From Indolivaga alginatilytica (GTDB lineage: Bacteria > Bacteroidota > Bacteroidia > Bacteroidales > Dysgonomonadaceae): a stretch of DNA of 64,000 bases. Location of the stretch: NCBI RefSeq assembly GCF_003201355.1, contig NZ_QICL01000009.1, forward strand, positions 62,001-126,000, written 5' to 3'. This document shows, one piece after another, positions 16,640-60,016 of this stretch. The number at the start of each line of letters is the position of its first letter. The first letter of the stretch is position 1. The notes under the pieces were generated by a model that saw only the letters and a program-made list of their open reading frames with translations, searched no databases and was not told where the DNA came from. A program made the position numbers and the translations under genes.

Positions 16640-17975
16640 ATTGTTTTACTGTACTTCCAAAGAATCCGAAGAAGGATATATACAGGAAGCACACTAAAGG
16701 AACAATGAAACCAATACTCATACTTGTTTCTCCTATCAGTCCCATTAGTGTTGGGGCAATTGCTCCACCAACTACAGTGAATACTAATATAGAAGAAGCC
16801 GTTTTAGTTTTTTCACCCAGATGCCTTAATCCCAAAGCGAAAATAGATGGAAACATGATAGACATGAACAAATAACTTGCTATTAAAGCGATAAGTCCGA
16901 AACGTGTATGGCTTGTCATTGCAACCACCATCAATAATGTATTTATAAGAGCAAAAGCTCCTAATAACATTTCGGGTTTTACTTTTTGCATGATCATACT
17001 ACCCGACAATCTGCCTATTGCAAATAGAGCCATTCCTCCAAGTCCTAGCAATAGTCCGGCTTGCATTTCGTTTAATTGCAAAGATTCTATTTCAACAGTG
17101 TAATTAATAAAGAAACTGCCTATCCCTGTTTGGGCTGCAACATACAAAAACTGAGCTATAACAGCCATTATAAAATGTCTTTGTTTTATCAGTGGTCTGT
17201 TTGAAATCCGTTCGTTATTGAGACTTGCAGCGGCATCATCCGAAGATGTATCTGATTTAATTTCAGGTAGTTTTACGAAAATAAATAAAACCAAAACTAA
17301 TAGAACAATTGTACCCAATCCTACATATGGTGCTACTAATGCAGAGTTATCAGTTATAGCTTCACTTGCCGAGGTTGTAATATTCTGTACTTGTTCTGTT
17401 GCTCCTAAGAATACTTTTTTTACGGCTTCAACAAATAGTTCTAATATTGACTTATCTGATTCGTTATTAAAGATTAGTATAGAACCAACAAGAGGTCCTA
17501 AGATCCAACCGATTGCATTAAAGGTTTGAGCCAGATTTATACGGCTTGCAGCTTTTTCGGGAGAACCTAATACTATTGTATATGGATTGGCTACAGTTTC
17601 GAGACATGCCAGACCACAGAATAATACTAACAGACCTATTAAGAAAGCCCAAAATGCATTAATACCAACTGCGGGAACAAACCAAAAGGCTCCTGCTGCA
17701 AAAAGAGAAAGACCAACTATAATTCCGAATTTATAACCAAACTTTCGCGCTATAATTCCGGCAGGAATCGCCATAATAAAATAAGCACCATAAGCAGCTG
17801 CTTGCACAGCCCCGGATTGGGCTTTTGTAAGGGATAATGAATCCTGAAAATGTTTATTTAAAACATCCAGTAGGCTATGTGCAAATCCCCATAAAAAAAA
17901 CAGACTGGTGATAAGGATAAATGGGAATAAATAATTAACTCCATTCTCTCCTGTAAACATCGAGTTTTTTTTCAT
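16638..17975 (-). CDS. fucP: L-fucose permease, major facilitator superfamily
   Basis: A 445-residue inner-membrane transporter with about 12 hydrophobic helices and a central loop near residues 225-255. The N-terminus contains FLWGFAHSLLDVLNKHFQ and AYGAYFIMAIPAG, typical of the FucP sugar:proton symporter family (fucose, glucose and galactose members). It is the last gene of the fuc operon, seven bases after the kinase stop. A long insert around residues 180-215 (FLGATEQVQNITTSASE) is somewhat larger than in E. coli FucP. Fucose specificity is inferred from the operon. Confidence 0.88.
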   Translation of the reverse strand: MKKNSMFTGENGVNYLFPFILITSLFFLWGFAHSLLDVLNKHFQDSLSLTKAQSGAVQAAAYGAYFIMAIPAGIIARKFGYKFGIIVGLSLFAAGAFWFVPAVGINAFWAFLIGLLVLFCGLACLETVANPYTIVLGSPEKAASRINLAQTFNAIGWILGPLVGSILIFNNESDKSILELFVEAVKKVFLGATEQVQNITTSASEAITDNSALVAPYVGLGTIVLLVLVLFIFVKLPEIKSDTSSDDAAASLNNERISNRPLIKQRHFIMAVIAQFLYVAAQTGIGSFFINYTVEIESLQLNEMQAGLLLGLGGMALFAIGRLSGSMIMQKVKPEMLLGAFALINTLLMVVAMTSHTRFGLIALIASYLFMSIMFPSIFALGLRHLGEKTKTASSILVFTVVGGAIAPTLMGLIGETSMSIGFIVPLVCFLYISFFGFFGSTVKQ

Positions 17976-17982
17976 ATTCTAA

Positions 17983-19446
17983 TTAAAATAAGTGTTTTAC
18001 ATTTTCTGAAATTTCTAACCATTTCTGGTTGTCTTTAGGATAATAAGATTTAAGGATAAAGCTGTTTTTTATAATTTCATGTCCTTCATTCCAGTCTTTG
18101 ACTGTTTCATCAGCAATGGCTTGTTGCATAATATTACCAATAGCTGTAGATTCGGTCATGCCTGTTGAGACAATAACATTGAGGGCATCTGCTGTATATT
18201 GGTTTAGTAAATCATTTTGACTGCCACCTCCCACAACATACAATTGTTCGATTTTTCTACCAGAGCATTCCTTTAGTTTTTTGACAACAAAATAATATTT
18301 TAATGCCAATGATTCCATAACACACCTTACAAACTCTCCTTTGCTTACTGGTCTAACTTGATTGGTGCTAGCACAGTAAGATTCTATTGCTGCACTCATT
18401 GAAGATGGATTCGAGAACTTTACATCATCGGGATTTACAATGCTTTGGAATGCTTTTGCTTGAATTGCTTCTGACAACAAATATTCGTACGAGTATTTCT
18501 TTTCATCCTTCTTTTCCCATTCAGCAATTAATTGCTGCAAGAGCCAAAGACCTGTGATGTTTCTCATGAAGAGTATTTTGCCATTCACTCCGCCTTCATT
18601 TGTAAAATCGTTCAGCATTGCTTCGGATGTCAGAATAGGTTCATCAGTAAGCAAGCCTAACAAAGACCATGTACCCGAACTGAGGAATGCCCAATTACCG
18701 CCTTCAGCAGGAATTGCTCCTATTGCACTGGCTGTATCATGCGAGCCAACAGCAAAGACTTTTGTATGTATGGCTCCTGTTTCTTCTACAATTGTTTTTG
18801 AAAGACTTCCTATAATTTCTCCTGGTTTTATAATTTCTTCCATGACAGAAAAGGGCAACTCTAATTGACGAAATATATATTCGTCCCATTGTCGTGTTTT
18901 TGCATTTAATAATTGAGAAGTAGAAGCTATTGTGTATTCATTAGCTGCCACACCTGTCAGGAAATAATTTATAAGATCGGGGGTGAAAAGTAGTTTATCT
19001 GCGGAACATAAAGAAGGATCGCCTTTAGAGTGAAGGCTGTATAATTGAAAAATGGTATTTATCTCCATTTGCTGAATACCTGTACTCTCATACAAATATT
19101 CTTTGGATATATTTTGCGTAGCCTCTTTTGCCATACCTAATGTACGGTGGTCTCTATAGGTCACAGGGTTGGAAACCAGATGCCCTGCTTTATCTATAAG
19201 ACCAAAATCGACACCCCATGTATCAACAGCTATGCCTTTTAGATTATATCCTTTTTTTACGGCAAGAAATATACCCTGTTTTATATTTTCAAAAAGAGAT
19301 AAGAAGTTCCAATGTAGCGTATTACCTAATTGAACAGGCTTATTCTCGAATCGGTGAATTTCATCTAAACAAATTCTTCCATCAACAATAGTTCCGACAA
19401 TGGCTCGACCACTGCCTGCACCCAGATCTAAAGCAAGATATGCCAT
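17983..19446 (-). CDS. fucK: FGGY-family kinase, probable L-fuculokinase (rhamnulokinase-like)
   Basis: A 487-residue cytoplasmic sugar kinase. The N-terminal phosphate-binding motif LALDLGAGSGRA, the AVDTWGVDFGL motif near residue 75 and the C-terminal YVVGGGSQNDLLNQYTADAL adenosine motif are all present. By sequence type it belongs to the RhaB branch, which in Bacteroides includes the fuc-operon kinase. Its position between fucA and fucP argues for L-fuculose as the substrate, giving L-fuculose 1-phosphate for the aldolase. Activity on rhamnulose as well is plausible, and relevant because the neighbouring cluster would release much rhamnose. It lies six bases after the fucA stop. Confidence 0.8.
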   Translation of the reverse strand: MAYLALDLGAGSGRAIVGTIVDGRICLDEIHRFENKPVQLGNTLHWNFLSLFENIKQGIFLAVKKGYNLKGIAVDTWGVDFGLIDKAGHLVSNPVTYRDHRTLGMAKEATQNISKEYLYESTGIQQMEINTIFQLYSLHSKGDPSLCSADKLLFTPDLINYFLTGVAANEYTIASTSQLLNAKTRQWDEYIFRQLELPFSVMEEIIKPGEIIGSLSKTIVEETGAIHTKVFAVGSHDTASAIGAIPAEGGNWAFLSSGTWSLLGLLTDEPILTSEAMLNDFTNEGGVNGKILFMRNITGLWLLQQLIAEWEKKDEKKYSYEYLLSEAIQAKAFQSIVNPDDVKFSNPSSMSAAIESYCASTNQVRPVSKGEFVRCVMESLALKYYFVVKKLKECSGRKIEQLYVVGGGSQNDLLNQYTADALNVIVSTGMTESTAIGNIMQQAIADETVKDWNEGHEIIKNSFILKSYYPKDNQKWLEISENVKHLF

Positions 19447-19452
19447 AAGTGA

Positions 19453-20097
19453 TCATTTAGATGTTTTGCCTAGAATATATTTATCAAGATCGTCAACTTC
19501 TTGTTCCGTAAGAGTTAAATAATTACCTGCTCCTGCATTTACAATTATCTGGCATGCCAATTCAAAGAATACTGCTTTTTGAAAAGCATCATCAAAGTCT
19601 TTTCCACAAACTACTTGTCCGTGCTTGCTGAGTAATGCAGTATCATTATTTGTTAATGCTGTTGTCACAGCCTTAGCAAGTTCGGGAGATCCCGGTCTAT
19701 GATAGTCTACAATCGATATTTCGCGACCGCAATAACAAGGTACTTCTGCAATAACGTTAAAATTGGTGGGTTTATCCTTCATACACGAAACTACTGTTGC
19801 GTATTGAGATTGGAAGTGTAGAACAACATTAACATCTTTTCTGGTACGTAACACACCTAGGTGAAATGAGCTTTCCATAGATGGCTTTACTCCTTGTACA
19901 GGCATTCCGTCAGAAATTCGGCATGCTGCAATTTTGTTTTCTGTAATACGGGGAAGCCAAGAGCCTGTTCCTGAGATTAAAGCTAAGTCTTCTTCTACTC
20001 TCCAGGATATGTTGCCACTGCTGCAAAGTTGTAAACGTTCTTTTCCTACTCTTTGAGCCTGTGTTATAAATTCAGCGAAATGTTTATCTGTTATCAT
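19453..20097 (-). CDS. fucA: L-fuculose-phosphate aldolase, class II
   Basis: A 214-residue cytoplasmic protein of the class II aldolase/adducin family. It should split L-fuculose 1-phosphate into lactaldehyde and dihydroxyacetone phosphate. It contains the SSGNISWR phosphate-site motif, ISGTGSWLPR, a metal-type His in VVLHFQSQYATVV, and LLSKHGQVVCG near residue 158. Length matches the E. coli FucA class (about 215 aa). It follows fucI after a 99-base gap that holds a hairpin and a motif shared with the fucI promoter region. In this family a rhamnulose-phosphate aldolase is the main alternative; fucI next door favours fucose. Confidence 0.85.
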   Translation of the reverse strand: MITDKHFAEFITQAQRVGKERLQLCSSGNISWRVEEDLALISGTGSWLPRITENKIAACRISDGMPVQGVKPSMESSFHLGVLRTRKDVNVVLHFQSQYATVVSCMKDKPTNFNVIAEVPCYCGREISIVDYHRPGSPELAKAVTTALTNNDTALLSKHGQVVCGKDFDDAFQKAVFFELACQIIVNAGAGNYLTLTEQEVDDLDKYILGKTSK

Positions 20098-20120
20098 GGT
20101 GTATATATGTGCTTACATCA

Positions 20121-20157
20121 ACTAAAACGAATAAACGTAAAGTCTATCCGTTTTAGT
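20121..20157 (-). promoter_or_regulatory. Hairpin in the fucI-fucA spacer
   Basis: ACTAAAACG at 20121-20129 pairs with CGTTTTAGT at 20149-20157 (nine base pairs, 19-base loop). It lies just upstream of the fucA start codon on the minus strand. No U-run follows, so it may be an mRNA processing or stability element that shifts the ratio of isomerase to downstream enzymes. Confidence 0.4.
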
Positions 20158-20162
20158 GTGTG

Positions 20163-20175
20163 ATTGGTATTACTT
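20163..20175. promoter_or_regulatory. 13-base motif shared with the fucI promoter region, copy 1
   Basis: ATTGGTATTACTT here, between fucI and fucA, is repeated exactly at 22082-22094 upstream of fucI. A shorter TTGGTAT also lies at 22222-22228 just before the AraC gene. A regulator binding site is possible; no protein-DNA evidence exists in the sequence. Confidence 0.35.
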
Positions 20176-20196
20176 TTGTTCTTATTTAACAGTTAA

Positions 20197-21984
20197 TTAC
20201 TTGTACAAAGGTCCGTAAGTTTCGCAAGCACGATAATCGGCACCTTCTTTATCCATTCCAAAGGCACTCCATACAGCCGGACGGAATACATCTTCTTTAT
20301 CCACATTGTGCATTGAAATAGGGATACGTAGCATTGATGCTAAGGTAATTATATCAGCTCCAATATGTCCATAGCTAATTGCTCCATGATTAGCTCCCCA
20401 GTTATTCATAACAGAATATACATCTTTGAAATTAGAGTCTTCTGTTAAACGAGGCACAAACCAGGTTGTAGGCCAGCCTTTATCGGTTCTGTCATCTAAT
20501 ACTTTGTGAATTGTAGGATCAATATCTACTGTCCATCCCTCAGCTATTTGAAGTACAGGGCCAAGTCCTTTAATTAAATTCAGACGAGCCATAGTACAAG
20601 GCATACCTCCTTTTGTTAGGAATTTTGAAGAATAGCCACCCCCTCTGAAATATTCGCGGTTGGCAGGCATCCAAGTAGTTGCATCAAGGCAAGCTTTGGC
20701 TTCTACTTCGCTAATATCCCAAAATGCTTTCATTGCTGGATTACCATTTTTATCTGATTGCTGACCTGAACCATCTAATGTTGCAGCACCCGAGTTTATC
20801 AAGTGAATCATACCATTAGCTGCTACTCCTTCGAGTTTCTTGCCTGTAACACGTTCTACAGCCTCAGGACTCCAATAAGTACGAACATCGGCAAATATTT
20901 GAGCTGTGTTGGTTAATAAATAACTGAATAGCATTACCGTTCCATTTAAAGCATCATTTTCTGTTGCTAACATATATGGAGCGCGAATACCTGTCCAGTC
21001 AAAAGATGAATTAAGAATTGCTTCTGCAAAGTCTCCGTTCGGATAAAAATCAGTCCATTGGCGTTGACCTTGAAATCCTGCTGCAATAGCATTATGACCA
21101 AGTGCTTCTTCTCCAAACCCCATTTCTTTAAGTTTAGGATTGCCCACCATCAAATCTCTGACAATGATAGCCATCTTTACAACAAACTCCCAGTCTGTAT
21201 CTTTTCCGGCTCTGTCTTTTATTAAGTCTTTTCGGTTGATAATATCTTCGCCTTCTTTACAATTGGCTTTAGCCCAAGCTAATGCTTTTTCGTATTCGTC
21301 TTTATCGTATATACCTTCTGTCATACGGCGAATTATTTCCACTTCGTCGATGCCTTCGCAACGCATACCTAAATAATCTTCGAAGAAGTCTGGACTCACA
21401 ATTGACCCTGCAATACCCATACATACAGCACCTATTGATAGGTATGATTTACCTTTCATAGTAGCTACTGCCATTCCGGAACGGGCAAAGCGTAATAGTT
21501 TTTCGGTAACATCTTTTGGAATAGAAGTGTCTGATGATTCTTGAACATCGTGACCATATATGCCAAATGCAGGTAATCCTTTTTGTGCATGTCCGGCTAA
21601 AACAGCTGCTAAATACACAGCTCCGGGACGCTCTGTTCCATTAAATCCCCAAACAGCTTTAACTGTATGCGGATCCATATCCATAGTCTCACTACCGTAA
21701 CACCAACAAGGGGTAACGGTAATAGTAACGCCTACACCTTCTTTTCTGAATTTTTCTGCACAAGCAGCACTTTCGGGTACACGACCTATTGTAGAGTCTG
21801 CAATTACACATTGTACAGGAGTACCATCGGGGTATTTTAAATTATCAGCTATTAATGTAGCTACACTTTTGGCCATGTTCATTGTTTGAACTTCCAACGA
21901 TTCACGTACACCACCCATACGACCATCTATAGTTGGGCGTATTCCGATCTTAGGCCATTCTCCTTGAAATCTGTTTTTCTTCAT
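20197..21984 (-). CDS. fucI: L-fucose isomerase
   Basis: A 595-residue cytoplasmic Mn-dependent isomerase converting L-fucose to L-fuculose; the length fits the FucI family (E. coli about 591 aa). The start reads [20 protein letters not shown], with [45 protein letters not shown] and the C-terminal [15 protein letters not shown] segment, all typical of FucI. It is the first gene of the minus-strand fuc operon, with a -7 box about 120 bases upstream and the AraC regulator divergent from it. Some family members also take D-arabinose. Confidence 0.96.
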
Positions 21985-41139: not shown

Positions 41140-43818
41140 TCAATAGAATAACCAATCAATTTTACTTGAAGCATCTTCTCCTCCAAATCCTGCATTATGA
41201 GGTGTGATTTTCTGATTAGCATCTATAAATCCGAGAATCATTAAAGCTCCTTTACCCAAATTCAGCGTATTTTTTCCTGCAGGGAAAGTATAAGAGTGAA
41301 TATTGACAGAACCTCTTCCCGGAATGTCTAAAGCATTGGCTATCTTAACATCTCCTTGTCCGTATTGATTGGCACTTGCGTCTGTCTCTAAGGTAGGAGC
41401 TTTAGCATATTCTTTACGTTCGGTATTAAGATATCCAACTAAGATACTAACAGGTTTCAGACTTTCGAAAGATAGGGTCGTTCCATGTTCTGCTTGTTTA
41501 TCCTGACTAAAGCGAATTGCCTTCATATTCTTCAATTCAGGAGAGAAATCTCCGATCACAAAATCTTTATCAGAGAATACTCTTTCTCCTTTTTTAATAA
41601 GGTAAGAGACTCCTTCTTTATTATCTATCTTAACCTCAACAGGTTTTAGTACATCAAAGGTTTGATTATCTGAATTTCCATTCTTTTTGATAAACTCAAC
41701 ATTTTTCTTGAAGTTTGCTAATTCTGCTTGGTAGTGAGGCAGAAGTTCTTCCCACGTTTTATTTTTTGCATCATCGCCTCCAATCGGAATACGGCGTTGA
41801 GCTGTTTGCATACTATTTGCATACAGATAGGCATCTTTGGTAAGATTTACTAATTGTTGATAATATTCCAAACTTTTTTCGATATGAGGAATTGCATTCT
41901 CCAGGTCTGCAATTTTATTAGAATGTGTATATTGAAGTATTAGCATAGCAGCTTTTACTTTTTCTGAGAAGAAGTTAGCAAATGCCTGATAGCAATACAT
42001 ATCGTTTTTCAGACGGTTAAACTCGTCTTTATTTTTATTTACTTTAGGTGCAGCTTTGTCTATAGCAGCAACGGCAGCATTACCATGCGCAACGGCTTCA
42101 GAAATCAACTGAGGAGGTGTTTCGCCTACATGAGGTTGTTTGTTCCATTCTTTGTTCATGTAATCAATTAGCATTTCGCCCTCGGGTCCGCACGATTCGT
42201 GAAATCCGGGATATACTTTCCATTTGGCAGGATTCACTAATTGACTTAAGAACATGCCCAATAGGAGGGTTTGTCTGTTTCCTTCGGTAATGCCGAATTT
42301 GCGAAGCAGTTTAGGTGCTATTTCACCCGATTGTTCGTAAGCTTCGAGTATATTCTTACCTTCCTCGCCACAACCGTACATATTGTCGAGTTGTTTTGTC
42401 CAGTATTTTATTTCATCATTTCTGTCTCTGTTTACATTCCAAGCATAACGTCCCCAAGCTTGATACCAAATCCAATCTCGTTCCATTTCTTTTAAACGAG
42501 GTTCAGTTTTATCGGCAGTATAAGGCCAGTCCCAATATGATGCTTGTGGATATAGGTGAAGAGCATTGGCTCCATGTACTTTATGCATAGCTTGTACACA
42601 TTTCTGGATAAAATCGGGAGATCCGTAACGGAAAGGCTCAAGATTAGCTAGAATATGAACATTTGATATATGTACTGAACCCAAGCTACTAAGATCGGTA
42701 TGAATCTTAGACCACGAACCTCGAGGTTCGTAAGTGGTTAACGATTCTCCATTGTATTTGTGCATGGTATACAAGTTCTTGTAAAGGGGTAGGGAAGCAT
42801 CCATCACCATTTTGGCATCAGTATCATGTGCTCTTACAACTATTGGAGGTTGTATTGTAGTATTTAATTTAGCTAAACCATCTTGTACTCCGGGAATAAT
42901 CGTTTTAGTGAACCATTCAACATCATCTTCATAAGTATCCATTGCTTCTCCCAAGCAAACTAAAAGTCCAACATTAGGATATTTCTCAATAAATGCAGCT
43001 ACTGATTTTCGAGTATAATCCGAAATAAGTGGCGTAATGGGGCGGCTTCTATCTTGTGTCTTTATTCCATAATGTTCGGCAAAAGGTTTAGATACGAATA
43101 TATTGTAAAACATCTGTATAACCCAAATACCGCGTTTGTCGGCTTCTTCGGTAAGAAATGCAAACATATCTTCATTCTTTTTGAATGTTTCATCGTCTAC
43201 CTCTACTGCAAATGGATAATCTTCCAGTTTTACCAACGAAGCAAAAGGATGCCCGTTCCATAAGTATAAAGAGTTCATTTTATTTTCGACCAACATATCC
43301 AGATATTCAATCCACAATGCTTTATCATAAAACCAAGGGAACGTTTCAGGGGTATATGGATATTCATATACATTTCTGCCAGGTAGATAGTATGGTTTTT
43401 GAATACCTACACAAGCACCACGCAAAACCATTTCGGGCTGATCTGTAATGTTGAAATTTGCAGGTAGTTTCTTTTCCTCTTTAATTTGTTTTACCAATTC
43501 TATACAACCATATAATGTGCCTGAAGCGTCATTGCCTTTAATTGAAATCAATCCGTTTTCGGATGCTATTGTATATCCTTCTTTTGCTAAAGAATCGGTT
43601 TTATTCTCGCTTATAGTAATAACTAGTGCGTCGTTATTCTCGTTTACAGTTTTTATTGAAACTGTATATTTAGCTTCTTCAAGAGCTGATTTTAATTTCT
43701 CAACACCAAAGGATACACGAGTTGACGGATTGTCTTCGACTATGATTGTTACTTTTTCCGTTGAGCACGAAATAAATAAAATCATAGAAAAAATAGCTAA
43801 TATTAATTTATGCTTCAT
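41140..43818 (-). CDS. GH138-like alpha-galacturonidase candidate, lipoprotein
   Basis: 892 residues; lipobox LFISC gives Cys18. Residues about 22-120 form an alpha-glucuronidase/GH20-type N-terminal domain (VSFGVEKLKSALEEA; SGTLYGCIELVKQI). A TIM barrel (about 130-480) follows, then a helical region to about 700 and a C-terminal sandwich. Candidate catalytic acids are Glu291 in VCLGEAMD and Glu358 in KYNGESLT. Their spacing of 67 residues equals the spacing I recall for the catalytic pair of the characterised GH138 enzyme, which removes alpha-galacturonic acid from RG-II chain A. That recollection needs checking. A GH67/GH115-like alpha-glucuronidase is the alternative. Cluster context supports the GH138 reading. 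Confidence 0.62.
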   Translation of the reverse strand: MKHKLILAIFSMILFISCSTEKVTIIVEDNPSTRVSFGVEKLKSALEEAKYTVSIKTVNENNDALVITISENKTDSLAKEGYTIASENGLISIKGNDASGTLYGCIELVKQIKEEKKLPANFNITDQPEMVLRGACVGIQKPYYLPGRNVYEYPYTPETFPWFYDKALWIEYLDMLVENKMNSLYLWNGHPFASLVKLEDYPFAVEVDDETFKKNEDMFAFLTEEADKRGIWVIQMFYNIFVSKPFAEHYGIKTQDRSRPITPLISDYTRKSVAAFIEKYPNVGLLVCLGEAMDTYEDDVEWFTKTIIPGVQDGLAKLNTTIQPPIVVRAHDTDAKMVMDASLPLYKNLYTMHKYNGESLTTYEPRGSWSKIHTDLSSLGSVHISNVHILANLEPFRYGSPDFIQKCVQAMHKVHGANALHLYPQASYWDWPYTADKTEPRLKEMERDWIWYQAWGRYAWNVNRDRNDEIKYWTKQLDNMYGCGEEGKNILEAYEQSGEIAPKLLRKFGITEGNRQTLLLGMFLSQLVNPAKWKVYPGFHESCGPEGEMLIDYMNKEWNKQPHVGETPPQLISEAVAHGNAAVAAIDKAAPKVNKNKDEFNRLKNDMYCYQAFANFFSEKVKAAMLILQYTHSNKIADLENAIPHIEKSLEYYQQLVNLTKDAYLYANSMQTAQRRIPIGGDDAKNKTWEELLPHYQAELANFKKNVEFIKKNGNSDNQTFDVLKPVEVKIDNKEGVSYLIKKGERVFSDKDFVIGDFSPELKNMKAIRFSQDKQAEHGTTLSFESLKPVSILVGYLNTERKEYAKAPTLETDASANQYGQGDVKIANALDIPGRGSVNIHSYTFPAGKNTLNLGKGALMILGFIDANQKITPHNAGFGGEDASSKIDWLFY

Positions 43819-48113: not shown

Positions 48114-49949
48114 TTATCGGTTTAATAAATGTTTGTATTTTACCTGTAATCCGGCTCTTTGCCTGATAGAGTCTGCGACCATCGGCCCGTTGTTTTCCCA
48201 GGTATTACCGGGGCCATTGGCATTTTGCAGAAACTTTTCTGAAGGAGTCCAGTTGTCTTTTACGGTGATGAAAGACGAACCTTCATCCGTATATAAATAG
48301 AACCAATGATCGGGATCGTGCACATAAGAGGGCACATAAATACTATCTACAACGTTCTCGCTGATAGTCGATTTCGATTGTACCGATAAGGTATAAATAC
48401 CTGCCACATCGTACATATGCTTACCATAATGATGGATATAATTGGCATGAACAAGATTGTTTCTCATACTATTGACGGTTTTTGTCCATCCCCATCCGAG
48501 ATTGATTCCCGAATATGAAACCTCACTGATTTCGTTGTGTTCGATGGTGATATCCCGTACAAATCCCGCTGCGATACCTAAACATCCCCAATCTTCGTTG
48601 GTAACATCGGTAATCAGATTATTTGCTATACGTTGATGTGAGCAAAGTAGTCTTTCGTCTTTGGGATCATAAGGTAAATGGCTTTCAAAAGCTTCTTCTG
48701 CAAATTCGCCTATTTGCAGACCGTTTCCGGCTATGTCTCTGAATAGGCAACCTTCAATTGTAGAATATTTAGAACCCGGAAGAATATCCACTCCACAAGA
48801 ACCAAGCTGTTCGAATCGACAGTCTTCAACCTCAATATAATTTGTGTTTTTTATTTGAAGTGTAGCAGGAGGGCGACCGATCCATCCTTGATTTTCGATG
48901 CCTTTATTGAAATTACCGGGAACTCCCGGAGGACGCAATTTATAGGCATCGACCAAGTACATACCTGCCTGTAACGGAACGTGTCCTTTTTCGGAAGGTC
49001 TTGTCCATGTTGTGTTTTTGAAGGAGAGTCCTTTAATATAGATATGCTCAACAGGTTTATCCAATGTTCCACAGATATTGATAAGAGTTTCAACAGCAGG
49101 AACTATAGCTTCTGCTTTGATCATGTCTTCGCCTTTTAGGGGGATGTAATATATTTTATTTGAGGTTCTGTCGTGATACCATTCACCCGGTTCATCAAGC
49201 AACTCGATAGCATTGGTCAGATAAAAAGCGGAGTTGAATCCTTCCTTTATCATCGGTTGCGGCCAAGGATGCTCGAACTGAATTCTGGCTTCGGGATTAT
49301 GAAATTTGATCCCTGCCGAATCGCCCTGTATCTGGATTGATTTTACACGCAGGTTTGCAATTGCCCACATTTGATGGATAACCAATTCTAGGTTTTCGGA
49401 CTTCATCACATTTTTTACGGCAGAAGCAGGAACCCAAAGAATTTCATTTATTTTATCGTTACTGCGGATTCTGTCCATTTTCTCAAAATCCGAAACATTA
49501 CGTGCACGTGTGGCTTTCTTACCATTGACCCACAGTTGTCTGAATAGGAGAGGGTTTCCGTTGAACGACGGTACACTGGCAGTCCAATACTTACCTTCTT
49601 TTTTCCAATTGGTTATATTTATACCTCCGCTTAATACTGGTTTTTCACCTTCAACAGCTTGTATAATGGTAGGGCTTTCTTCTGTTCCCGAATCTTCGGG
49701 ACGGATAAAAACAGGTTCATAAAGGGAATAAGTACCCCCTGCCATCCAGATATAAAGAGGTTCGTTTTTGTTGATCTTACCCAATCGACGCATATTACGA
49801 GCTTCCCTCAAAGCACTATGTAAGGTTGCTTTAGGGGCAGATTTTGTTCCTTCATTGCTGTCTTTTCCTGTGGGACTGACATAAATATCCGCACCGAAAG
49901 ATTGGAATGAAGCAAAAATGAAAACTAAAAAACTAATATATTTAATCAT
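48114..49949 (-). CDS. GH141-type right-handed beta-helix enzyme
   Basis: 611 residues with a signal peptide (to about residue 19, SFGA). The mature start ADIYVSPTGKDSNEGT and the repeating right-handed beta-helix region (about 250-560; NYIEVEDCRFEQLGSCGVDI, RIANNLITDVTNEDWGCLG, ITIEHNEISEVSYSGINLGW) are typical of GH141. The characterised member from B. thetaiotaomicron (BT1002) removes alpha-L-fucose from RG-II chain A. The same family also contains xylanases, so fucosidase activity is inferred from the neighbours (GH140, GH127, GH78). It is separated from the upstream fusion gene by 105 bases holding the 57-bp repeat element. Confidence 0.82.
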   Translation of the reverse strand: MIKYISFLVFIFASFQSFGADIYVSPTGKDSNEGTKSAPKATLHSALREARNMRRLGKINKNEPLYIWMAGGTYSLYEPVFIRPEDSGTEESPTIIQAVEGEKPVLSGGINITNWKKEGKYWTASVPSFNGNPLLFRQLWVNGKKATRARNVSDFEKMDRIRSNDKINEILWVPASAVKNVMKSENLELVIHQMWAIANLRVKSIQIQGDSAGIKFHNPEARIQFEHPWPQPMIKEGFNSAFYLTNAIELLDEPGEWYHDRTSNKIYYIPLKGEDMIKAEAIVPAVETLINICGTLDKPVEHIYIKGLSFKNTTWTRPSEKGHVPLQAGMYLVDAYKLRPPGVPGNFNKGIENQGWIGRPPATLQIKNTNYIEVEDCRFEQLGSCGVDILPGSKYSTIEGCLFRDIAGNGLQIGEFAEEAFESHLPYDPKDERLLCSHQRIANNLITDVTNEDWGCLGIAAGFVRDITIEHNEISEVSYSGINLGWGWTKTVNSMRNNLVHANYIHHYGKHMYDVAGIYTLSVQSKSTISENVVDSIYVPSYVHDPDHWFYLYTDEGSSFITVKDNWTPSEKFLQNANGPGNTWENNGPMVADSIRQRAGLQVKYKHLLNR

Positions 49950-50054: not shown

Positions 50055-53000
50055 TTATTGAAAAACTGATTTCAGATAATTGGCATTTGCTCCGAAATTT
50101 TTCTTCACATTGTGAACATCCGTTGTATCACGTGATCGCTCTACAACAAGCCATCCGCTCCATCCCATCTTGTCAAGCGTTTTCTTTACTTCGGGCATAT
50201 TGATTGCAGGATCGTTTTCGAGCCAATCCCCGTCGGTATTACTTGCATGTATTTGGATAATACGGTCTTTTCCTAACGTTTTAAGCTCTTTGATAATATC
50301 TCCGTTACGTTTCAGAATACTTGAAAAATTAACATAACTTCTTATCGACGGAGAACCTATTTCATCGATCAATTTTGCTTCTTTTTTGGCATCCAGAGAA
50401 GTTTCGATACCAATAACTACTCCTGCTTTTTCGGCTTTCCTGGCAACCACTTTCATACGTTCCAAAATAATAGGATATAATTCGGGATTTTTAGCTAAAT
50501 CGCTTTGATTTCCAAGAGGCAGAAAAGCCACTCTTACACCTAATACCTGCATGGTTGCGATACATTCGTCGATCAATTGTTCGTAATTATCTCTGTTGGC
50601 AAACGATTGTCCGTAAAAGCCCGACATGGCTATAGAACTGAATTGTATACCCACTCTGTTGCATTCGGAGATAAATAACTCCTGAAATTGCTTCTCTGTA
50701 AGCTTGTTGTCAAAAGATACACGTTTGCCGAGGCTACCCATATCCAGTTCCAAACCGTCTGCACCTACTTCCTGAGCCAATTGCATAGCACCCACTTTCT
50801 GACGTTTCAGCATCATCCAGTCGCAGACCGAAACTTTATATCTGTTGTTATTTACAACTTGAATTTCAGAAGTTTCGGCTGCCGATGGCCAAGCCATATT
50901 CTCTATCTTTGACAATACCAGCTTGCTGGGATCTATCTGAATATGTTTTATGGCTTTCCGTCTCCATGTATACACAATATGTACCATGCCGTCTTTACTC
51001 TGAATAACAGACGGATAAGAATACTGGCTGATAGGCGAGTCTTCTAAAATAGAAGTGGCATACCAAGTTTTACCGTCTTCCGAAATAGCTACATTCAAAG
51101 GTGTACGAGCTCCTTTTCCATTTTTTAGAGTGTCGTGGGGCAATACGTGATTGTATACCAATAGTTGACGACCGCCTTGCAAGGTTACCGCATCCGTTCC
51201 CGAATTATTATTGGGTAGCATTGTTTTAGCCATAGGAGTCCATGTTTTTCCATTATCAGACGACCACGATTCGGCAATCGCACGCTCTTTGGTTCGGCAA
51301 AGTATCTGTAGTTTTCCATCCTTATGAGTCAGGATAGACGGTTGTATTGTATGTAACTCTATCCCTTCGTTTATAGGGCCTATTTTATACCATGTTTTAC
51401 CTAAATCTTTACTGGCTTCGAAATGTACTCTCCATACACCGCCTTCGGTACTCGATGGGCTGAGAAGTGTTCCGTTTTTCAATAAAACAGGTTTGTTCTT
51501 CACTGGGCCTAAAAATCCATCGGGTAAGTCAATCGGTTTCGACCATCTTTTACCGCCATCCTGAGAGGTTATGAGTTTGCCAACCCATCCTGCAACATTG
51601 GGACCTACTTTGTAGTATAGCTGTAATTCACCGTTGGGTACTTGAAACAATACGGGATTCCAACAGGCATATCGCAAAGTATCGTTTACAATGCCGTTGG
51701 CTACGTTCTGAGGTTCTGTCCATTGCCCGTTGATTAAATGGCTCGTCCAGATACAAACATCGGGATTTCGTTCTTTAGTGCCGCCAAACCAAGAGGCTAT
51801 CAATTGCCCTTCTTTCGTCTCGGCAATAGTAGCCGCGTGACTTTCGGGGTAGGGGGCAGTCTTGTTTATAAATTGATCGACTATGATTCCTTCCCTCCAG
51901 CGATTAAACGATTGTCCGTATTTGCAGGTGAAAACATACTCTCCCGATCCTATTTCGAGGTTGATTCTGCCTTTTTCTTCCCTAACATATTTAAGCCCTT
52001 CGACTTTGGTTATCGGTTGCCCGTTTTCTGTAATATCATCTCCGGAGGCGGCAGGCAATAAAATATTGGCACGGGTATTTGCCGGAATCGTAATTTTCCA
52101 GGTAAAAATACCTTTATCCAGATTCCATTCACTTTTTGCCAATCCGTATAAGGTCTGATGAGAAGCTTTTGCATACGTCAGATCTTCGGTCGGATTGGGC
52201 ATCATCCACAGATTCTTAAATCCGGGATAGTTAGGGTGGGGTTTGATACCTGCCACATCCTGATACATCCATGTGATGAGATCTCCCAATAACATGACAT
52301 GATTGTGAGAATTCATTTGGGGACTGGCTGTATCGCCGTTCCAAAGTTCCCAGATGGTTGTAGCTCCTTTTTCAGCCATATATCCCCAACTCGGATAGTC
52401 TTTTTGTGAAGCAATGGTGTAAGCGACATCCGCACAACCTCTTTTCGTCAGTTCACGCATAAGCCACTGTGTGCCGATAACTCCTGTGCCGATGTGCATT
52501 TTATCTTTTATGACAATTTTATCGAGCATATTTTGGAATACAATACCTTCGTTTTGCTTATCTACCATATTGAATGCCAGAGGCAACAAATTAGCGGTAA
52601 CTGTATAGTTGCCGTATTGCCCTGTCTTGTGATCATAAAATTTAGTATTGAATGCCATTCTTACATTTTCAGCCAAATCTGCATAAGGTTGAATATCCGC
52701 ACTGTTATTGCTTATTTTTGCAAATTTCTGCATGAATAACAATATCTTATAGAAATAAGCAGTGGCAATAAGCTGACCATCGGTTATTCGGGCAGGGTCT
52801 TGCGACTTAATCATTTCTTTAGCTTCGGGAGGAACGCACCAATCACCGTATTTATCCTTCGTCATGATGTAATCTTTGGTCATGTATTTGTCAGTCATAT
52901 ACGAAAGCCATTTTTTCATAGACGGATAATGCTCAACGATAGGCTGGGAGTTTCCAAACTGATTATATAGCATATCGGCAATAAACATATATGTACCCGG

Positions 53001-54665
53001 CCATGTCATATTATCGCTGTAATAAGTCATATAAAAAGGAGGCACTATATCCGACAGTTGACCGTTATCGAGTTGAGAATCCTGTATATCTTTCAGCCAT
53101 TTGGTATAGATTTTTTCGTTTCCGAAAATGTAACTTTCGCCCAAAGAGCCTGTTGTACGGTCGCCTAACCACGGCTGTCTTTCGTCTCTTTGCGGACAAT
53201 CGAGGGGTATTCCTTTGTAATTTCCACGAATAGCCCAATAAGCATTCTTATAGACCCTATTCAGTATATCATTGGATGATTCGAAGTGACCTGTTGTTTC
53301 TATGCCATCATAAACTACCTGTCCTAGAAAGTTTTCGATAACAGGTTTTTCGGAATACCCTGAGATTTCCATATAACGGAAGCCATGGTGCATAAACGAT
53401 GGTTCCCACGACTCTAAAGCATCGCCTCTCATTGTGTAGATGTCGGTTTGCTTGGCACTTCTCAGATTGGCTGTAAATAAATGTCCATCAGCTTTTAGGG
53501 TCTCAGCAAATCGCATGGATATTTTAGCTCCTTTTTTGCCTTTTAGGTTCTGAATCTTCACCCAGCCTGTCATATTTTGCCCCATATCTACAATGAAAGT
53601 ATCAGCTTTAAGATGAGTAATAGAAACGGGCTTGAGCGATTCATGTATCTTCATATTCTCGCTCATCTGAGCCGATAGTTTACCTTCGGGAGCTTTTATT
53701 AATTCAACCGCTTGCCATTTTTTATCGTTGAATCCGATTTCGTTCCATTTTCCCAGTTCTTTGGTAGCATCGTATTCTTCGCCGTCAAAATCATTATTCG
53801 AACGGACAGGGCCATCGGTTGTAATTTTCCATGAACCATCACTTACTATAATTTCTTTTGTACCGTCGGTGTACTCTATTTCGACTTGGCAAAGTAGTTT
53901 AGGGTATCCGAATGTTTTAATCTTATGCGGTTTGAAATTCTGACGCATATTGTAAAAACGTCCGTTTCCTAAAACGACTCCGATGGCATTTTTACCGTTT
54001 TTGATCTCTTTGGTAACATCGAACGTGTTATAAAGTACAGTCTTTGTATAATCGGTAGCCACAGGTGCTAATACCTGATCGCCTATTTTATTACCATTGA
54101 TATAAAGCTCATATACTCCTAATCCTGAGATATATGCTTTAGCTGACTTAATGCTTTTATTGCTGTTAAATTCTTTTCTCAAATAGCGAGCTGAAAGTCT
54201 AGCCCACTGTGTTTCACTATCCCAAGGGAATACTTTATCTAATCCTATCCATTGAGCAGACCAATCTTTATCAGATAAGAGCCCGATACTGAATTTTGCG
54301 GGTTTGCTCCATTCCGAGTCGCCTTTGTTGGTAGATACTTTTACTTTCCAATACACATCGGTGCGGCTTTTTAACGGAGTGCCCCCGTAATTTATAAAAA
54401 TAGATTGGCTATCGGTTACTTTTCCCGAATCCCAAATATCTGCTTCGTTTTTAGCTAGCTTATCAGCTGATGAAGCCATCAGTATCTGATAGGTAGTTTG
54501 ACTGAGATTCCGCTCTTTGGCGAGAATTATCCAACTCAACCGAGGTTGAGAAGTAGCAATTCCTTCTGGATTGGTAAGCATTTCACATCTAAGCCTGTCT
54601 ACTTCGATACTAAATGCACTTGATAAGTAAAATACCGATAATAGTATTAATATTATTCTTTTCAT
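50055..54665 (-). CDS. Triple fusion: GH78 rhamnosidase + sialidase-like BNR propeller + TIM-barrel isomerase-like domain
   Basis: One uninterrupted 1536-residue frame with a signal peptide (about 1-20). Residues about 20-910 form a full-size GH78 with the catalytic segment DCPQRDERQPWLGD near 490. Residues about 920-1265 form a BNR/sialidase-type propeller with four Asp-box-like repeats (SQDGGKRW, SKDLGKTW, SSDNGKTW, SEDGKTW). Its opening ESHAATIAETKEGQLIASWFGG is typical of the predicted-neuraminidase BNR_2 group; the arginine-rich site of classical GH33 is not obvious. Residues about 1275-1536 form an AP-endonuclease-2-type TIM barrel as in sugar-phosphate isomerases/epimerases (GIETSLD, IHASNTDGDW, VVERSRD), with Asn in the VNFS segment where I expect a metal-ligand Asp. 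It follows the GH140 gene by one base. A role on a rhamnose-capped keto-sugar side chain is inference. Confidence 0.82.
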   Translation of the reverse strand: MKRIILILLSVFYLSSAFSIEVDRLRCEMLTNPEGIATSQPRLSWIILAKERNLSQTTYQILMASSADKLAKNEADIWDSGKVTDSQSIFINYGGTPLKSRTDVYWKVKVSTNKGDSEWSKPAKFSIGLLSDKDWSAQWIGLDKVFPWDSETQWARLSARYLRKEFNSNKSIKSAKAYISGLGVYELYINGNKIGDQVLAPVATDYTKTVLYNTFDVTKEIKNGKNAIGVVLGNGRFYNMRQNFKPHKIKTFGYPKLLCQVEIEYTDGTKEIIVSDGSWKITTDGPVRSNNDFDGEEYDATKELGKWNEIGFNDKKWQAVELIKAPEGKLSAQMSENMKIHESLKPVSITHLKADTFIVDMGQNMTGWVKIQNLKGKKGAKISMRFAETLKADGHLFTANLRSAKQTDIYTMRGDALESWEPSFMHHGFRYMEISGYSEKPVIENFLGQVVYDGIETTGHFESSNDILNRVYKNAYWAIRGNYKGIPLDCPQRDERQPWLGDRTTGSLGESYIFGNEKIYTKWLKDIQDSQLDNGQLSDIVPPFYMTYYSDNMTWPGTYMFIADMLYNQFGNSQPIVEHYPSMKKWLSYMTDKYMTKDYIMTKDKYGDWCVPPEAKEMIKSQDPARITDGQLIATAYFYKILLFMQKFAKISNNSADIQPYADLAENVRMAFNTKFYDHKTGQYGNYTVTANLLPLAFNMVDKQNEGIVFQNMLDKIVIKDKMHIGTGVIGTQWLMRELTKRGCADVAYTIASQKDYPSWGYMAEKGATTIWELWNGDTASPQMNSHNHVMLLGDLITWMYQDVAGIKPHPNYPGFKNLWMMPNPTEDLTYAKASHQTLYGLAKSEWNLDKGIFTWKITIPANTRANILLPAASGDDITENGQPITKVEGLKYVREEKGRINLEIGSGEYVFTCKYGQSFNRWREGIIVDQFINKTAPYPESHAATIAETKEGQLIASWFGGTKERNPDVCIWTSHLINGQWTEPQNVANGIVNDTLRYACWNPVLFQVPNGELQLYYKVGPNVAGWVGKLITSQDGGKRWSKPIDLPDGFLGPVKNKPVLLKNGTLLSPSSTEGGVWRVHFEASKDLGKTWYKIGPINEGIELHTIQPSILTHKDGKLQILCRTKERAIAESWSSDNGKTWTPMAKTMLPNNNSGTDAVTLQGGRQLLVYNHVLPHDTLKNGKGARTPLNVAISEDGKTWYATSILEDSPISQYSYPSVIQSKDGMVHIVYTWRRKAIKHIQIDPSKLVLSKIENMAWPSAAETSEIQVVNNNRYKVSVCDWMMLKRQKVGAMQLAQEVGADGLELDMGSLGKRVSFDNKLTEKQFQELFISECNRVGIQFSSIAMSGFYGQSFANRDNYEQLIDECIATMQVLGVRVAFLPLGNQSDLAKNPELYPIILERMKVVARKAEKAGVVIGIETSLDAKKEAKLIDEIGSPSIRSYVNFSSILKRNGDIIKELKTLGKDRIIQIHASNTDGDWLENDPAINMPEVKKTLDKMGWSGWLVVERSRDTTDVHNVKKNFGANANYLKSVFQ

Positions 54666-54666: not shown

Positions 54667-56112
54667 TCAATTCTTATTATCTATTAAATTACCTTCTACG
54701 TAAGATTTTGATGCATCTGTAACTATTAATACCCAGTCATTTCCGGCACCATACCCCGAGTCATTGATGAATGTCTGTTTTCCATTTTCAAACTCAGCAA
54801 TAAATTCTGTTTTTCCATTTCTAGGATTAAACCACCACGCTTTCTTCTTATTTCCGGATATTTTAGTTAAATCAATCTCTGTCAATCTGTTTGTGTAATT
54901 ATATACCAGGATATAATCTTTTCCACGTGTGGCAATTACTCGCTCGTATTGTACTCCATTTACATTAGTTATTACCGATTGATCAGGAATGCGTTCGAAA
55001 AAAGGAAATGCCAAGAACAACTTTTTTAAATATTTCATTTGTTGACAACCCGGATCGTGAAGGGCTTCCCACCAAGGTTTCTTTGCTCCAAATGAAGCTT
55101 GATAACTGGGGCGAAGCATTTGCATTGTAGAATTATGCCCGTATGTGTGACCGAACGATCCTGCAAATACCGACCAGTAAGCGTATCGGCGTACATCTTC
55201 AGCTTGCCAGTAACGTTCATCAAAATCATGTAAACCATGAGGAATATCTTCATAAGAAGGCTCTCCATCGATTACAGGCTTTAGTGGGTTTTCGGCTAAA
55301 CTACGTTCTACAAAACGCCAGTTATCTTCTTCTGTATTTTCCTCTATCGGATAATCTCCGTCACCGAAACGTTGCCCATAGCGACGATGACCCGATTGAA
55401 ACATATTGAAATCAAGCCAAGGTTCATTATTAAACCAAGTGGTAGATATTGTACGTCCGCGAGGATGAAAAGTCATTAAATGGTCTGGATCAATGGCTCT
55501 TATTGTTTTAGCTAATGTTTGCCATACTTCGGGTTGAACATCCCCACGGATATCTCCACCGATAAGCCACACAATATTGGGGTATTTTTTATATCGTTCG
55601 GCTAAAAATTTACCGTATATCTTAGCATTTTCTATGGATAACTGTTTTTGTTGGACAACACTTCCCCACACACAAACGATACCTATATATATACCTTTGG
55701 CTTTGGCTTTCTCAACTATATAGTCGACATGTTGCCAATAGTTGTATTCTCCTTTTTTGTCTGTATTTTCGAAGGTGAACCCGTCAGGCAGTGCCCAATC
55801 TCCGTAGGCATTCATTGCAGAAAAGGTATGCAGGGTCGATATCTGAACAACATTATAGCCGTTCTTTTGGGTTTCGTTCATAAAGAAGTCTACTTCATCC
55901 CGATTGGAGCGTGAAGGTAATAGCCATGCCGTTTCTCCCAGCCAGAAAAACGGTTTTCCGTTTTCGTGTTGAAGGAAACGTTTATTGTCGCTGACTTTTA
56001 GCTTCCCATTCTCCCAAGGTATGTCGATTTTGCTTTTCTTCTCTTGTGCATGGATAGAACCCAGTCCTAAAAATGCTAAGGCGGCTATAAGTATAACTTT
56101 GTATGTCTTCAT
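54667..56112 (-). CDS. GH140 apiosidase
   Basis: 481 residues with a signal peptide (to about residue 22, SIHAQ). A TIM barrel carries the apiosidase-family signature: NGKPFFWLGETAWLLPSRSN, then KNGYNVVQISTLHTFSAMNAYGD, then YKKYPNIVWLIGGDIRG. A C-terminal small sandwich follows (KKAWWFNPRNGKTEFI). GH140 cleaves the apiose-galacturonic acid linkage that attaches chains A and B to the RG-II backbone (BT1012 in B. thetaiotaomicron). Apiose of this type is essentially an RG-II marker, so this gene is the strongest clue to the target of the whole cluster. The stop TGA is followed after one base by the ATG of the fusion gene, so they are probably translationally coupled. Confidence 0.9.
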   Translation of the reverse strand: MKTYKVILIAALAFLGLGSIHAQEKKSKIDIPWENGKLKVSDNKRFLQHENGKPFFWLGETAWLLPSRSNRDEVDFFMNETQKNGYNVVQISTLHTFSAMNAYGDWALPDGFTFENTDKKGEYNYWQHVDYIVEKAKAKGIYIGIVCVWGSVVQQKQLSIENAKIYGKFLAERYKKYPNIVWLIGGDIRGDVQPEVWQTLAKTIRAIDPDHLMTFHPRGRTISTTWFNNEPWLDFNMFQSGHRRYGQRFGDGDYPIEENTEEDNWRFVERSLAENPLKPVIDGEPSYEDIPHGLHDFDERYWQAEDVRRYAYWSVFAGSFGHTYGHNSTMQMLRPSYQASFGAKKPWWEALHDPGCQQMKYLKKLFLAFPFFERIPDQSVITNVNGVQYERVIATRGKDYILVYNYTNRLTEIDLTKISGNKKKAWWFNPRNGKTEFIAEFENGKQTFINDSGYGAGNDWVLIVTDASKSYVEGNLIDNKN

Positions 56113-58615: not shown

Positions 58616-60016
58616 TTATTTTTCAATGCCTACTTGTCTCAAAACATTCATCAAGGCTTCTTTTCCTTTTATGGCATTTAGAGGAAGATTCTCTCCATTT
58701 TTACCGAAAGCATACATTTGCCATTCTTTCTCGATGGTTATTGTACTTTCATCGTATTGACCCTCTTTATTTTTAAGCATTTCGGCATTTAACCCGAATT
58801 TTTCAGCTATAAAATCATACGCTGCTATCCTTTTAGAGAACCCGTAGTCGTGCCCTTCCTCAGGTAAGTGAACATTCTTTACGTTATCAGTAGCGCCATA
58901 AAATCCGTAAATCCGTTTTATAAAAGGATATTCTAAAGCAGGAACACTACTTGACCAATCTTTACCATCTGAGATTATTAATTGGGGTTTAGGTGCAAAT
59001 ATGGCTGCAACTTCAGCATTATTAGTACGGTTTCCACATAAATGAGTGGGCATACCGTTTTCGCATGGACAGCCTCCATTGAAATGCGATGCTAGCATTA
59101 CTACAGGAATACTCAAACTAATCCGATCGTCTATGGCCGACATCATCATCGTCATGCTGCCACCTCCCGATCCTCCTGTGATCCCTACACGAGAAGAATC
59201 TGACTCTTTGAGGGTTAAGAGATAATCGAGTATTCGTATAGCATTTAATGTTTGTATAGAGTGTGCCGCACTTAAACGATGTAATGTACCATCAAATTGT
59301 AGTAGGCTTTCTCCCCACGCAAAAATATCCCAAGAGGCGGAAATGATACCCATACGAGCTTGCATAGCACATCGTTTTTGTTGGTCTTCACGATACCTGC
59401 CAAGTCCGAAATGTCCATTGGGATTTAGTATAACGGGACATTTACCTTTTATTTTTGAAGGTTTATAAATAGATCCACAAACATATATACCAGGTAATGT
59501 TTCAATTGCAAAATTCTCAACTGTATATCCGTTGTATTTTCTTTTAGCTGTCAGTATAACCTTAGAATCTGGTTTTTCGGGTAATGGCGATAACCTTAAA
59601 GCTTCTCTAAAGCAGGGGGTAAGTTCAGTTTTACGTTTTTCCCAGCTTGCTTTATCGTTATATTGTGATTCGAGATATGCCAGAAACTTTTCTCCTTGAG
59701 CAACATTTGTTCTGGCATATTCAAACGATTTTATTTTATACTTATCGTTATCCATAACAAAAGTATAATCGAAAGGAGCCAGCACAGCATATAGACTTTC
59801 TTCTACACTCCATGGTTTGATTCTCCAATCAGCATAATTCAAGACTTTATCGTCTATCATTTTATTATCATACTTAATTTTGATATTGAATTGTAGCTCA
59901 ATATCTGCCAAAACGTCTTTGAGAGGACGTGCATAAGAATCGTCTGCTGTTTGTGCAAACAATGCAGATGAAATAATAATTAATTGAAATAAGAGGATAG
60001 TTGTCAGTTTTCTCAT
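58616..60016 (-). CDS. Secreted alpha/beta-hydrolase esterase with N-terminal STN-like domain
   Basis: 466 residues with a signal peptide (to about residue 22, FAQ). Residues about 27-97 resemble the STN/DUF4974 small domain found on TonB receptors and anti-sigma factors (LADIELQFNIKIKYDN, then VEESLYAVLAPFDYTFVMDN, then YKI). The alpha/beta-hydrolase fold follows, with Ser283 in GITGGSGGGSM, an acid at Asp350 or Asp353 (SDGKDWS) and His389 in EEGHDYG. A cysteine-rich loop GGCPCENGMPTHLCGN lies at 314-329. The RG-II locus of B. thetaiotaomicron includes an alpha/beta-hydrolase pectin methylesterase (BT1017, CE19 as I recall), the best guess here; an acetyl esterase is the alternative. Its start overlaps the GH28 stop (ATGA). 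Confidence 0.72.
   Translation of the reverse strand: MRKLTTILLFQLIIISSALFAQTADDSYARPLKDVLADIELQFNIKIKYDNKMIDDKVLNYADWRIKPWSVEESLYAVLAPFDYTFVMDNDKYKIKSFEYARTNVAQGEKFLAYLESQYNDKASWEKRKTELTPCFREALRLSPLPEKPDSKVILTAKRKYNGYTVENFAIETLPGIYVCGSIYKPSKIKGKCPVILNPNGHFGLGRYREDQQKRCAMQARMGIISASWDIFAWGESLLQFDGTLHRLSAAHSIQTLNAIRILDYLLTLKESDSSRVGITGGSGGGSMTMMMSAIDDRISLSIPVVMLASHFNGGCPCENGMPTHLCGNRTNNAEVAAIFAPKPQLIISDGKDWSSSVPALEYPFIKRIYGFYGATDNVKNVHLPEEGHDYGFSKRIAAYDFIAEKFGLNAEMLKNKEGQYDESTITIEKEWQMYAFGKNGENLPLNAIKGKEALMNVLRQVGIEK

What the first reader, a model, noticed from the sequence alone, without database searches (positions are those of the whole stretch)
50055..54665. One protein for the Rha-Kdo side chain? 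GH78 + sialidase-like propeller + isomerase-like barrel
RG-II chain C is alpha-L-rhamnose linked to Kdo, a 2-keto-3-deoxy sugar related to sialic acid, and GH33 sialidase-fold enzymes include Kdo hydrolases. A rhamnosidase fused to a four-Asp-box propeller in an RG-II cluster therefore suggests consecutive removal of Rha and then Kdo. The third domain, an AP-endonuclease-2/sugar isomerase barrel on an exported protein, has no obvious role in this scheme and might bind or isomerise the released sugar. The triple architecture is new to me.
Basis: partly seen in the sequence, partly recalled or inferred. Interest (0 to 1): 0.85.

Follow-up and report, generated by a model that had tools for sequence, protein, structure and literature searches.

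The report
Three-in-one pectin-digesting protein with sialidase-like domain
A gut-type bacterium carries one exported protein that joins a rhamnose-removing enzyme, a sialidase-shaped domain and a sugar-isomerase-shaped domain inside its gene set for digesting the most complex plant pectin; it probably strips a two-sugar side chain, but its sialidase-shaped and isomerase-shaped parts have altered active sites, so their exact jobs remain to be tested.

The parts
50055..54665 (-). Whole ORF, 1536 aa, GH78 / sialidase-like propeller / ketose-epimerase-like TIM barrel
   Evidence: same architecture in 27 records = 18 genomes
52023..54602 (-). GH78 alpha-L-rhamnosidase region, residues 22-881
   Evidence: five Pfam models; phmmer to 6i60 E 3.8e-188 and 3w5m E 2.1e-154
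53181..53183 (-). GH78 general acid E495 (aligns with E636 of 3w5m; role of E636 recalled)
   Evidence: motif in 26 of 26 GH78 records counted
52347..52349 (-). GH78 base E773 in GATTIWELW (role recalled)
   Evidence: motif in 24 of 26 records
50868..51917 (-). Sialidase-fold propeller, residues 917-1266 as modelled
51837..51839 (-). H943, at the place of GH33 Arg1 (YRIP) in an ungapped register
   Evidence: 50 of 50 His; no Arg between residues 925 and 965, register against four YRIP sialidases; MAFFT left the Arg opposite a gap just beside it
51771..51773 (-). E965, candidate general acid (aligned with the GH33 Asp; alternative D969)
   Evidence: E965 50 of 50; D969 46 of 50; alignment
51342..51344 (-). 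Q1108, at the place of the GH33 Glu that activates Tyr
   Evidence: 50 of 50 Gln
51294..51296 (-). R1124 = GH33 Arg2
   Evidence: 50 of 50
51105..51107 (-). R1187 = GH33 Arg3
   Evidence: 50 of 50
51015..51017 (-). Y1217 = GH33 nucleophilic Tyr (hhalign shifts this by two columns; Y1215 the alternative)
   Evidence: 50 of 50; spacing of 15 to the next strand's Tyr as in four sialidases
50058..50864 (-). TIM barrel, residues 1268-1536 as modelled
50796..50807 (-). Invariant KRQK (1287-1290) after strand 1 of the barrel
   Evidence: 63 of 63 at each position; strand limits
50328..50330 (-). N1446, at the place of the Asp metal ligand of ketose 3-epimerases
   Evidence: N 44, K 16, S 2, C 1 of 63; Asp in none; alignment (weak, E 0.019)
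54667..56112 (-). GH140 apiosidase, neighbour (its relative is fused to this protein in L045)
58616..60016 (-). BT1017-type (CE19) esterase, neighbour; relatives are fused to the propeller or to the barrel elsewhere
   Evidence: 6goc E 1.5e-150
48114..49949 (-). GH141, neighbour
41140..43818 (-). GH138 alpha-galacturonidase, RG-II marker
   Evidence: NF049878 1559.7 bits

Best explanation
This is a periplasmic side-chain remover for rhamnogalacturonan-II, acting on side chain C. The GH78 domain takes off the terminal alpha-L-rhamnose. The sialidase-fold propeller, sitting directly behind it, then cleaves the exposed Kdo from the galacturonan backbone through a ketosidase mechanism related to GH33, with Tyr1217 as nucleophile and R1124, R1187 and His943 holding the carboxylate. 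It copies the layout of BT1020, which does the same two steps on side chain D (Araf, then Dha). The C-terminal barrel is an RG-II-linked derivative of ketose 3-epimerases. I think it binds or chemically handles an acidic RG-II sugar or fragment (basic KRQK at the barrel mouth) rather than acting as a standard metal-dependent isomerase. Shown by sequence or model: the fusion, its conservation, the RG-II context, both folds, and the kept and swapped residues. Inferred: export, the order of action, Kdo as substrate, the roles of H943 and Q1108, and the barrel's role.
Against: Arg1 place holds His and the Tyr-activating Glu is Gln in 50 of 50 sequences, so retaining GH33 chemistry is unproven and the domain could be a different enzyme or a binding module. 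The propeller family occurs in 28 of 45 propeller-positive genomes without a GH138 match, and single-domain paralogues sit in other gene neighbourhoods, so the domain alone is not RG-II-specific. The own genome has one more weak propeller match (G000:C10:102111, E 2.0e-6) that was not identified. Of 44 named loci that hold the barrel without the propeller, only 15 show one of those RG-II-type neighbours within the fetched flanks (counted by hand); in B. xylanisolvens the barrel lies about 25 kb from the GH78+propeller gene. Four of 17 GH138 genomes lack the barrel. In other genomes the domains work as separate chains, so the fusion itself is not essential. No assay exists here.
Confidence: 0.57

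Rival explanations
1. The propeller is not a Kdo hydrolase but a different acidic-sugar enzyme (for example one that works by elimination or inversion) or a catalytically dead binding domain that holds the pectin acid sugar for the GH78 domain.
For: His at the Arg1 place and Glu->Gln, both 50 of 50; presence in 28 of 393 genomes without a GH138 match; other contexts of single-domain paralogues, such as a cluster with Gfo/Idh oxidoreductase, AP_endonuc_2, alkaline phosphatase and MFS genes. Precedent for a changed carboxylate triad (Arg, Arg, Asn) with an Asp/His inverting mechanism in GH156 (PMC6811678, passages).
Against: Tyr, R2, R3 and an acidic residue at the acid's place are invariant, which a mere binding domain need not keep; physical and genomic coupling to chain-specific enzymes.
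Confidence: 0.28
2. The barrel is an active isomerase or epimerase that converts a sugar released by the first two domains (Rha, Kdo) in the periplasm.
Against: The Asp ligand is N, K, S or C in 63 of 63; the first Glu is Arg in 14 of 63. No clear relative among solved structures by sequence (best E 0.019).
Confidence: 0.17
3. The barrel acts with the CE19 esterase or with the galacturonan backbone, not with side chain C, and was joined to GH78-propeller only by chance of gene order.
For: CE19-barrel fusions in L068 and L077, also reported in print (BT1017-CM with a xylose isomerase-like TIM barrel, PMC7939467, passages); barrel beside or fused to DUF3826, which is the C-terminal domain of BT1017.
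Against: Two clades join it to the propeller side as well: the triple clade and a prop-barrel clade.
Confidence: 0.3
4. Assembly artefact or missed stop codon joining separate genes.
For: None found.
Against: Same open frame in 18 genomes, one clade with support 98.
Confidence: 0.01

Closest known systems
BT1020 (GH142 + GH143, RG-II chain D)
   Same: One protein with a sialidase-like propeller and an exo-glycosidase domain that together strip a terminal sugar and then a 2-keto-3-deoxy sugar (PMC6811678 passages).
   Different: Propeller five-bladed with Tyr-Glu pair as published; here the match is to six-bladed sialidases and the pair is Tyr-Gln; the partner is GH78, and a barrel is added. 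A BT1020 homologue is present separately in this genome.
Bacteroides/Phocaeicola GH78+propeller protein next to GH140 (B. xylanisolvens L189 7571-11431, P. vulgatus L191 9666-13640, B. acidifaciens L193 10313-14185)
   Same: Same two domains, 48-52% identical to each, with GH95 and GH140 upstream. Its place next to the GH140 gene corresponds to BT1013 by gene order; that tag is my inference from BT1012, BT1017 and BT1018 as named in PMC7939467.
   Different: No barrel fused; the barrel is a separate gene.
GH33 sialidases / Kdn and Kdo hydrolases
   Different: His at the Arg1 place, Gln for the Glu partner, Glu (or a nearby Asp) at the acid place.
D-tagatose 3-epimerase / UlaE / xylose isomerase-like barrels
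   Different: Asp ligand absent in 63 of 63; invariant KRQK.
BT1017 (CE19) and relatives
   Same: Same loci; CE19 fused to xylose isomerase-like barrels has been reported (PMC7939467, passage).

Membership tests
GH78 | Domain set and similarity to solved GH78 rhamnosidases | tested here: met
GH78 | General acid Glu and base Glu (roles recalled from 3w5m work) | tested here: met
   E495 aligns with E636 of 3w5m; acid motif 26 of 26, base motif 24 of 26 records
GH78 | Rhamnosidase activity | not testable with these tools
   no assay
GH33 | Sialidase propeller fold | tested here: met
GH33 | Three-Arg carboxylate triad | tested here: not met
   R2 and R3 kept; no Arg at the R1 place, His in 50 of 50
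GH33 | Tyr/Glu nucleophile pair | tested here: not met
   Tyr kept, Glu is Gln in 50 of 50
GH33 | Asp general acid | tested here: inconclusive
   E965 (50 of 50) aligned there, D969 (46 of 50) close by
GH33 | Ketosidase activity | not testable with these tools
   no assay
GH143 | PF24067 Beta-prop_BT_1020 match | tested here: not met
   absent from the Pfam matches of this protein at E 0.001, present in the BT1020 homologue; distant hhalign link 91.1%
PL42 (FoRham1) | BNR_4 (PF15892) propeller | tested here: not met
   no PF15892 match at E 0.001; FoRham1 is BNR_4 (PMC8377490 passages)
Ketose 3-epimerase / xylose isomerase-like | TIM-barrel fold | tested here: met
Ketose 3-epimerase / xylose isomerase-like | Glu-Asp-His-Glu metal site (ligand set recalled) | tested here: not met
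   Asp absent in 63 of 63; first Glu 39 of 63; His 62 of 63; last Glu 63 of 63

The most novel reading that the evidence does not exclude
The C-terminal barrel founds an RG-II-specific protein family that has left sugar isomerisation: with the Asp metal ligand gone and an invariant basic KRQK mouth, it handles an acidic RG-II sugar in a way not yet described, and the propeller is a ketosidase with a new Tyr/Gln/His active site. Together they would be two unreported activities at the Kdo side chain of pectin.
Probability: 0.25. Interest if true: 0.72.

Novelty: new variant of a known kind. Interest (0 to 1): 0.5.

Why it matters
RG-II is among the most complex plant glycans and its breakdown is a model for glycan foraging. 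A gene family found in 13 of 393 genomes, all 13 with the RG-II marker GH138, joined to different RG-II enzymes in different lineages and without a role known to me, points to a step that the present picture may leave out. The propeller bridges GH33 and GH143 by profile and carries two fixed swaps in the classic sialidase pocket, so it is a compact test of how ketosidases handle Kdo.

Tried and rejected
PL42/PL24/PL25 lyase reading of the propeller, with H943 as catalytic base: considered because FoRham1 cuts Rha-GlcA; dropped because that family is BNR_4 and seven-bladed (PMC8377490 and PMC10951650, passages) while this domain is BNR_2 and superposes on sialidases. Artefact/missed stop: rejected.

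Sequence search of the barrel against solved structures gave nothing at E 0.001 and E 0.019 at best when loosened to 10; the fold search settled the fold instead. The original RG-II degradation paper (Nature 2017, 10.1038/nature21725) is not held, so I could not see which B. thetaiotaomicron enzyme was assigned to Rha-Kdo or Kdo. PMC7939467 states that this species cleaves 21 of 22 RG-II linkages, all but 2-O-Me-Xyl-Fuc (passage), so a Kdo-releasing enzyme is probably known there. A paper search for the fusion found no paper; one for BT1013 gave nothing relevant in its listing; the others gave context. That GH33 in B. xylanisolvens PUL 2 is the GH78+propeller protein is likely, not proven: in L189+L190 that ORF scores 493 bits with the propeller profile, the BT1020 homologue 18 bits, and the YRIP sialidase profile finds nothing; the paper's figure was not seen and the locus tags were not matched to coordinates.

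Alignment doubts. MAFFT left the sialidase Arg1 opposite a gap beside H943; the ungapped register and the absence of any Arg between 925 and 965 are my grounds. HMMER's NanB/NanC alignments do not reach the Arg1/acid part and do not put R1187 on an Arg; searches do. hhalign shifts the nucleophile by two columns; I kept Y1217 (Tyr 50 of 50) over Y1215 (48 of 50, Phe in 2) because of the equal spacing. DUF3826 fusion was confirmed by Pfam for L104 only; the other five rows so labelled were labelled by my list of longer barrel proteins.

A1 holds 49 of the 53 deduplicated propeller stretches plus the window (L007, L058, L022, L028 left out by hand); A2 holds 62 of 77 barrel stretches plus the window. 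The 26 GH78 records were those with 800 or more aligned residues at 45% or more identity. Genome searches scored only part of the first-look candidates. Fisher tests ignore relatedness, so only the counts should be used.

Full report
What is there. The minus strand of window 50055-54665 encodes one 1536-residue protein with an N-terminus like a signal peptide (the signal was read by eye). Pfam divides it into a complete GH78 rhamnosidase (22-881), a BNR_2 propeller (953-1230) and an AP_endonuc_2 barrel (1295-1532). Three canonical Asp boxes and one shortened box lie in the propeller. The gene sits between GH140 and GH141, with GH138, GH127, GH95, GH106, GH28 and a BT1017-type (6goc, E 1.5e-150) esterase gene around it. 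The genome is a Dysgonomonas: the nearest named record is Dysgonomonas sp. HGC4, 94% identical over propeller and barrel.

The fusion is real. The same open frame was found in 27 of 131 sorted ORF records, which are 18 genomes after merging duplicates. On a barrel tree the 15 triple rows form one clade, support 98 (quick method, 65 rows). Elsewhere in Bacteroidota the parts are arranged in many ways: GH78+propeller (Bacteroides, Phocaeicola), GH78+propeller followed at once by the barrel gene (L210), GH78, propeller, CE19 and barrel as neighbouring genes (Mucilaginibacter), propeller+barrel (L052, L212), propeller+CE19 (L063, L064, L080), CE19+barrel (L068) and symporter+CE19+barrel (L077), barrel+DUF3826 (Prevotella L104) and GH140+GH78+propeller+barrel in one 1864-residue protein (L045). 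The tree needs five changes of arrangement. Repeated joining of the same partners argues for a shared task.

RG-II link in numbers. In 393 genomes of the order, the barrel profile hits 13 (E up to 1e-50), GH138 17 (E up to 1e-100; 16 over the cut-off), the BT1020 propeller family 20 (E up to 1e-30) and the propeller profile 45 (E up to 1e-60). All 13 barrel genomes have GH138, the BT1020 propeller and the propeller. All 17 GH138 genomes have the propeller, 13 have the barrel, and 28 propeller genomes have no GH138. So the barrel goes with RG-II, whereas the propeller family is wider. By neighbourhood, 33 of 36 named propeller loci show RG-II-type neighbours, but only 15 of 44 named barrel-only loci do within their flanks (hand count); in B. 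xylanisolvens the barrel is about 25 kb away from the GH78+propeller gene, beyond such flanks. Some single-domain paralogues lie elsewhere, such as next to a Gfo/Idh oxidoreductase, another AP_endonuc_2 protein, an alkaline phosphatase family protein and an MFS transporter in L124, or beside aromatic amino acid genes in L125.

Why Kdo. RG-II has two 2-keto-3-deoxy side chains: Rha-Kdo (chain C) and Araf-Dha (chain D) (PMC12282258, passage). The chain D enzyme BT1020 carries both activities in one protein (PMC6811678, passage), and its homologue (65% identical to the B. xylanisolvens protein that matches 5mqr) is encoded about 26 kb away in this genome. That leaves Rha-Kdo for a rhamnosidase tied to a second sialidase-like propeller. 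The propeller profile is related to both GH33 (97.5%) and GH143 (91.1%), from small partner profiles. The idea that GH33-type proteins may act on Kdo or Dha of RG-II has been written for plant GH33 (PMC6852159, passage). This is inference, not proof; the own genome also has an unidentified weak propeller match on another contig.

Known or new. GH33 and GH78 are both listed for B. xylanisolvens PUL 2, described there as homologous to an RG-II-induced B. thetaiotaomicron locus (PMC4769552, passages and section 8). The GH78+propeller gene of that genome lies with GH95, GH140, GH28 and BT1020-type genes, so the two-domain form is probably what was annotated. CE19 with a xylose isomerase-like barrel is also reported. 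I saw no mention of the GH78-propeller-barrel protein or of the residue swaps in the listings and passages from the ten paper searches made; most subscription papers are not held. Verdict: a real, conserved and sensible architecture; a new variant of a known kind, with an open question in the barrel.

Noticed in passing
L045:6254-11848 (Dysgonomonadaceae MAG): A 1864-aa protein with GH140, GH78, propeller and barrel in one chain (Pfam): four RG-II domains.
   Followed up: partly
L077:9539-12997 (Puia MAG): A 1152-aa frame joining a sodium:solute symporter, a CE19-like domain and the barrel; symporter and barrel partners of CE19 are also mentioned in PMC7939467.
   Followed up: partly
L124:5891-11687; similar in L133 (alkaline phosphatase checked there only): A paralogous propeller in other genomes of the family sits with a Gfo/Idh oxidoreductase, a different AP_endonuc_2 barrel, an alkaline phosphatase family protein and an MFS transporter: a second propeller-barrel association outside RG-II.
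   Followed up: partly
L189:11545-12432, L193:14297-15184: In Bacteroides a 295-aa protein directly follows the GH78+propeller gene; in L189 it is a short-chain dehydrogenase with about 55 extra N-terminal residues (L193 not scanned).
   Followed up: no
L196:11838-12488 (own genome, C9 downstream of the window): Stand-alone DUF3826 protein in the same region; DUF3826 is fused to the barrel in Prevotella L104.
   Followed up: partly
L197:5622-12692 (own genome): GH78-like gene, aldo/keto reductase, amidohydrolase, a 415-aa likely transporter and zinc dehydrogenase in a row after the BT1020 homologue; looks like a non-phosphorylating deoxysugar pathway.
   Followed up: no
L196:12624-15755: 1043-aa protein with DUF6298 (816.8 bits) in the region, function unknown.
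   Followed up: no
G000:C10:102111-102917: A second, weak propeller match (E 2.0e-6, 33% identity, open frame 670 aa) in the own genome; similar matches in G032, G034 and G014. Perhaps an ordinary sialidase.
   Followed up: no
L084: A record titled Staphylococcus MAG carries a barrel that groups with Bacteroides sequences; probably a mis-binned contig.
   Followed up: no
window 16638-21984: Fucose isomerase, FGGY kinase, class II aldolase and MFS transporter genes in a row, fit for L-fucose from RG-II and possibly D-arabinose.
   Followed up: no
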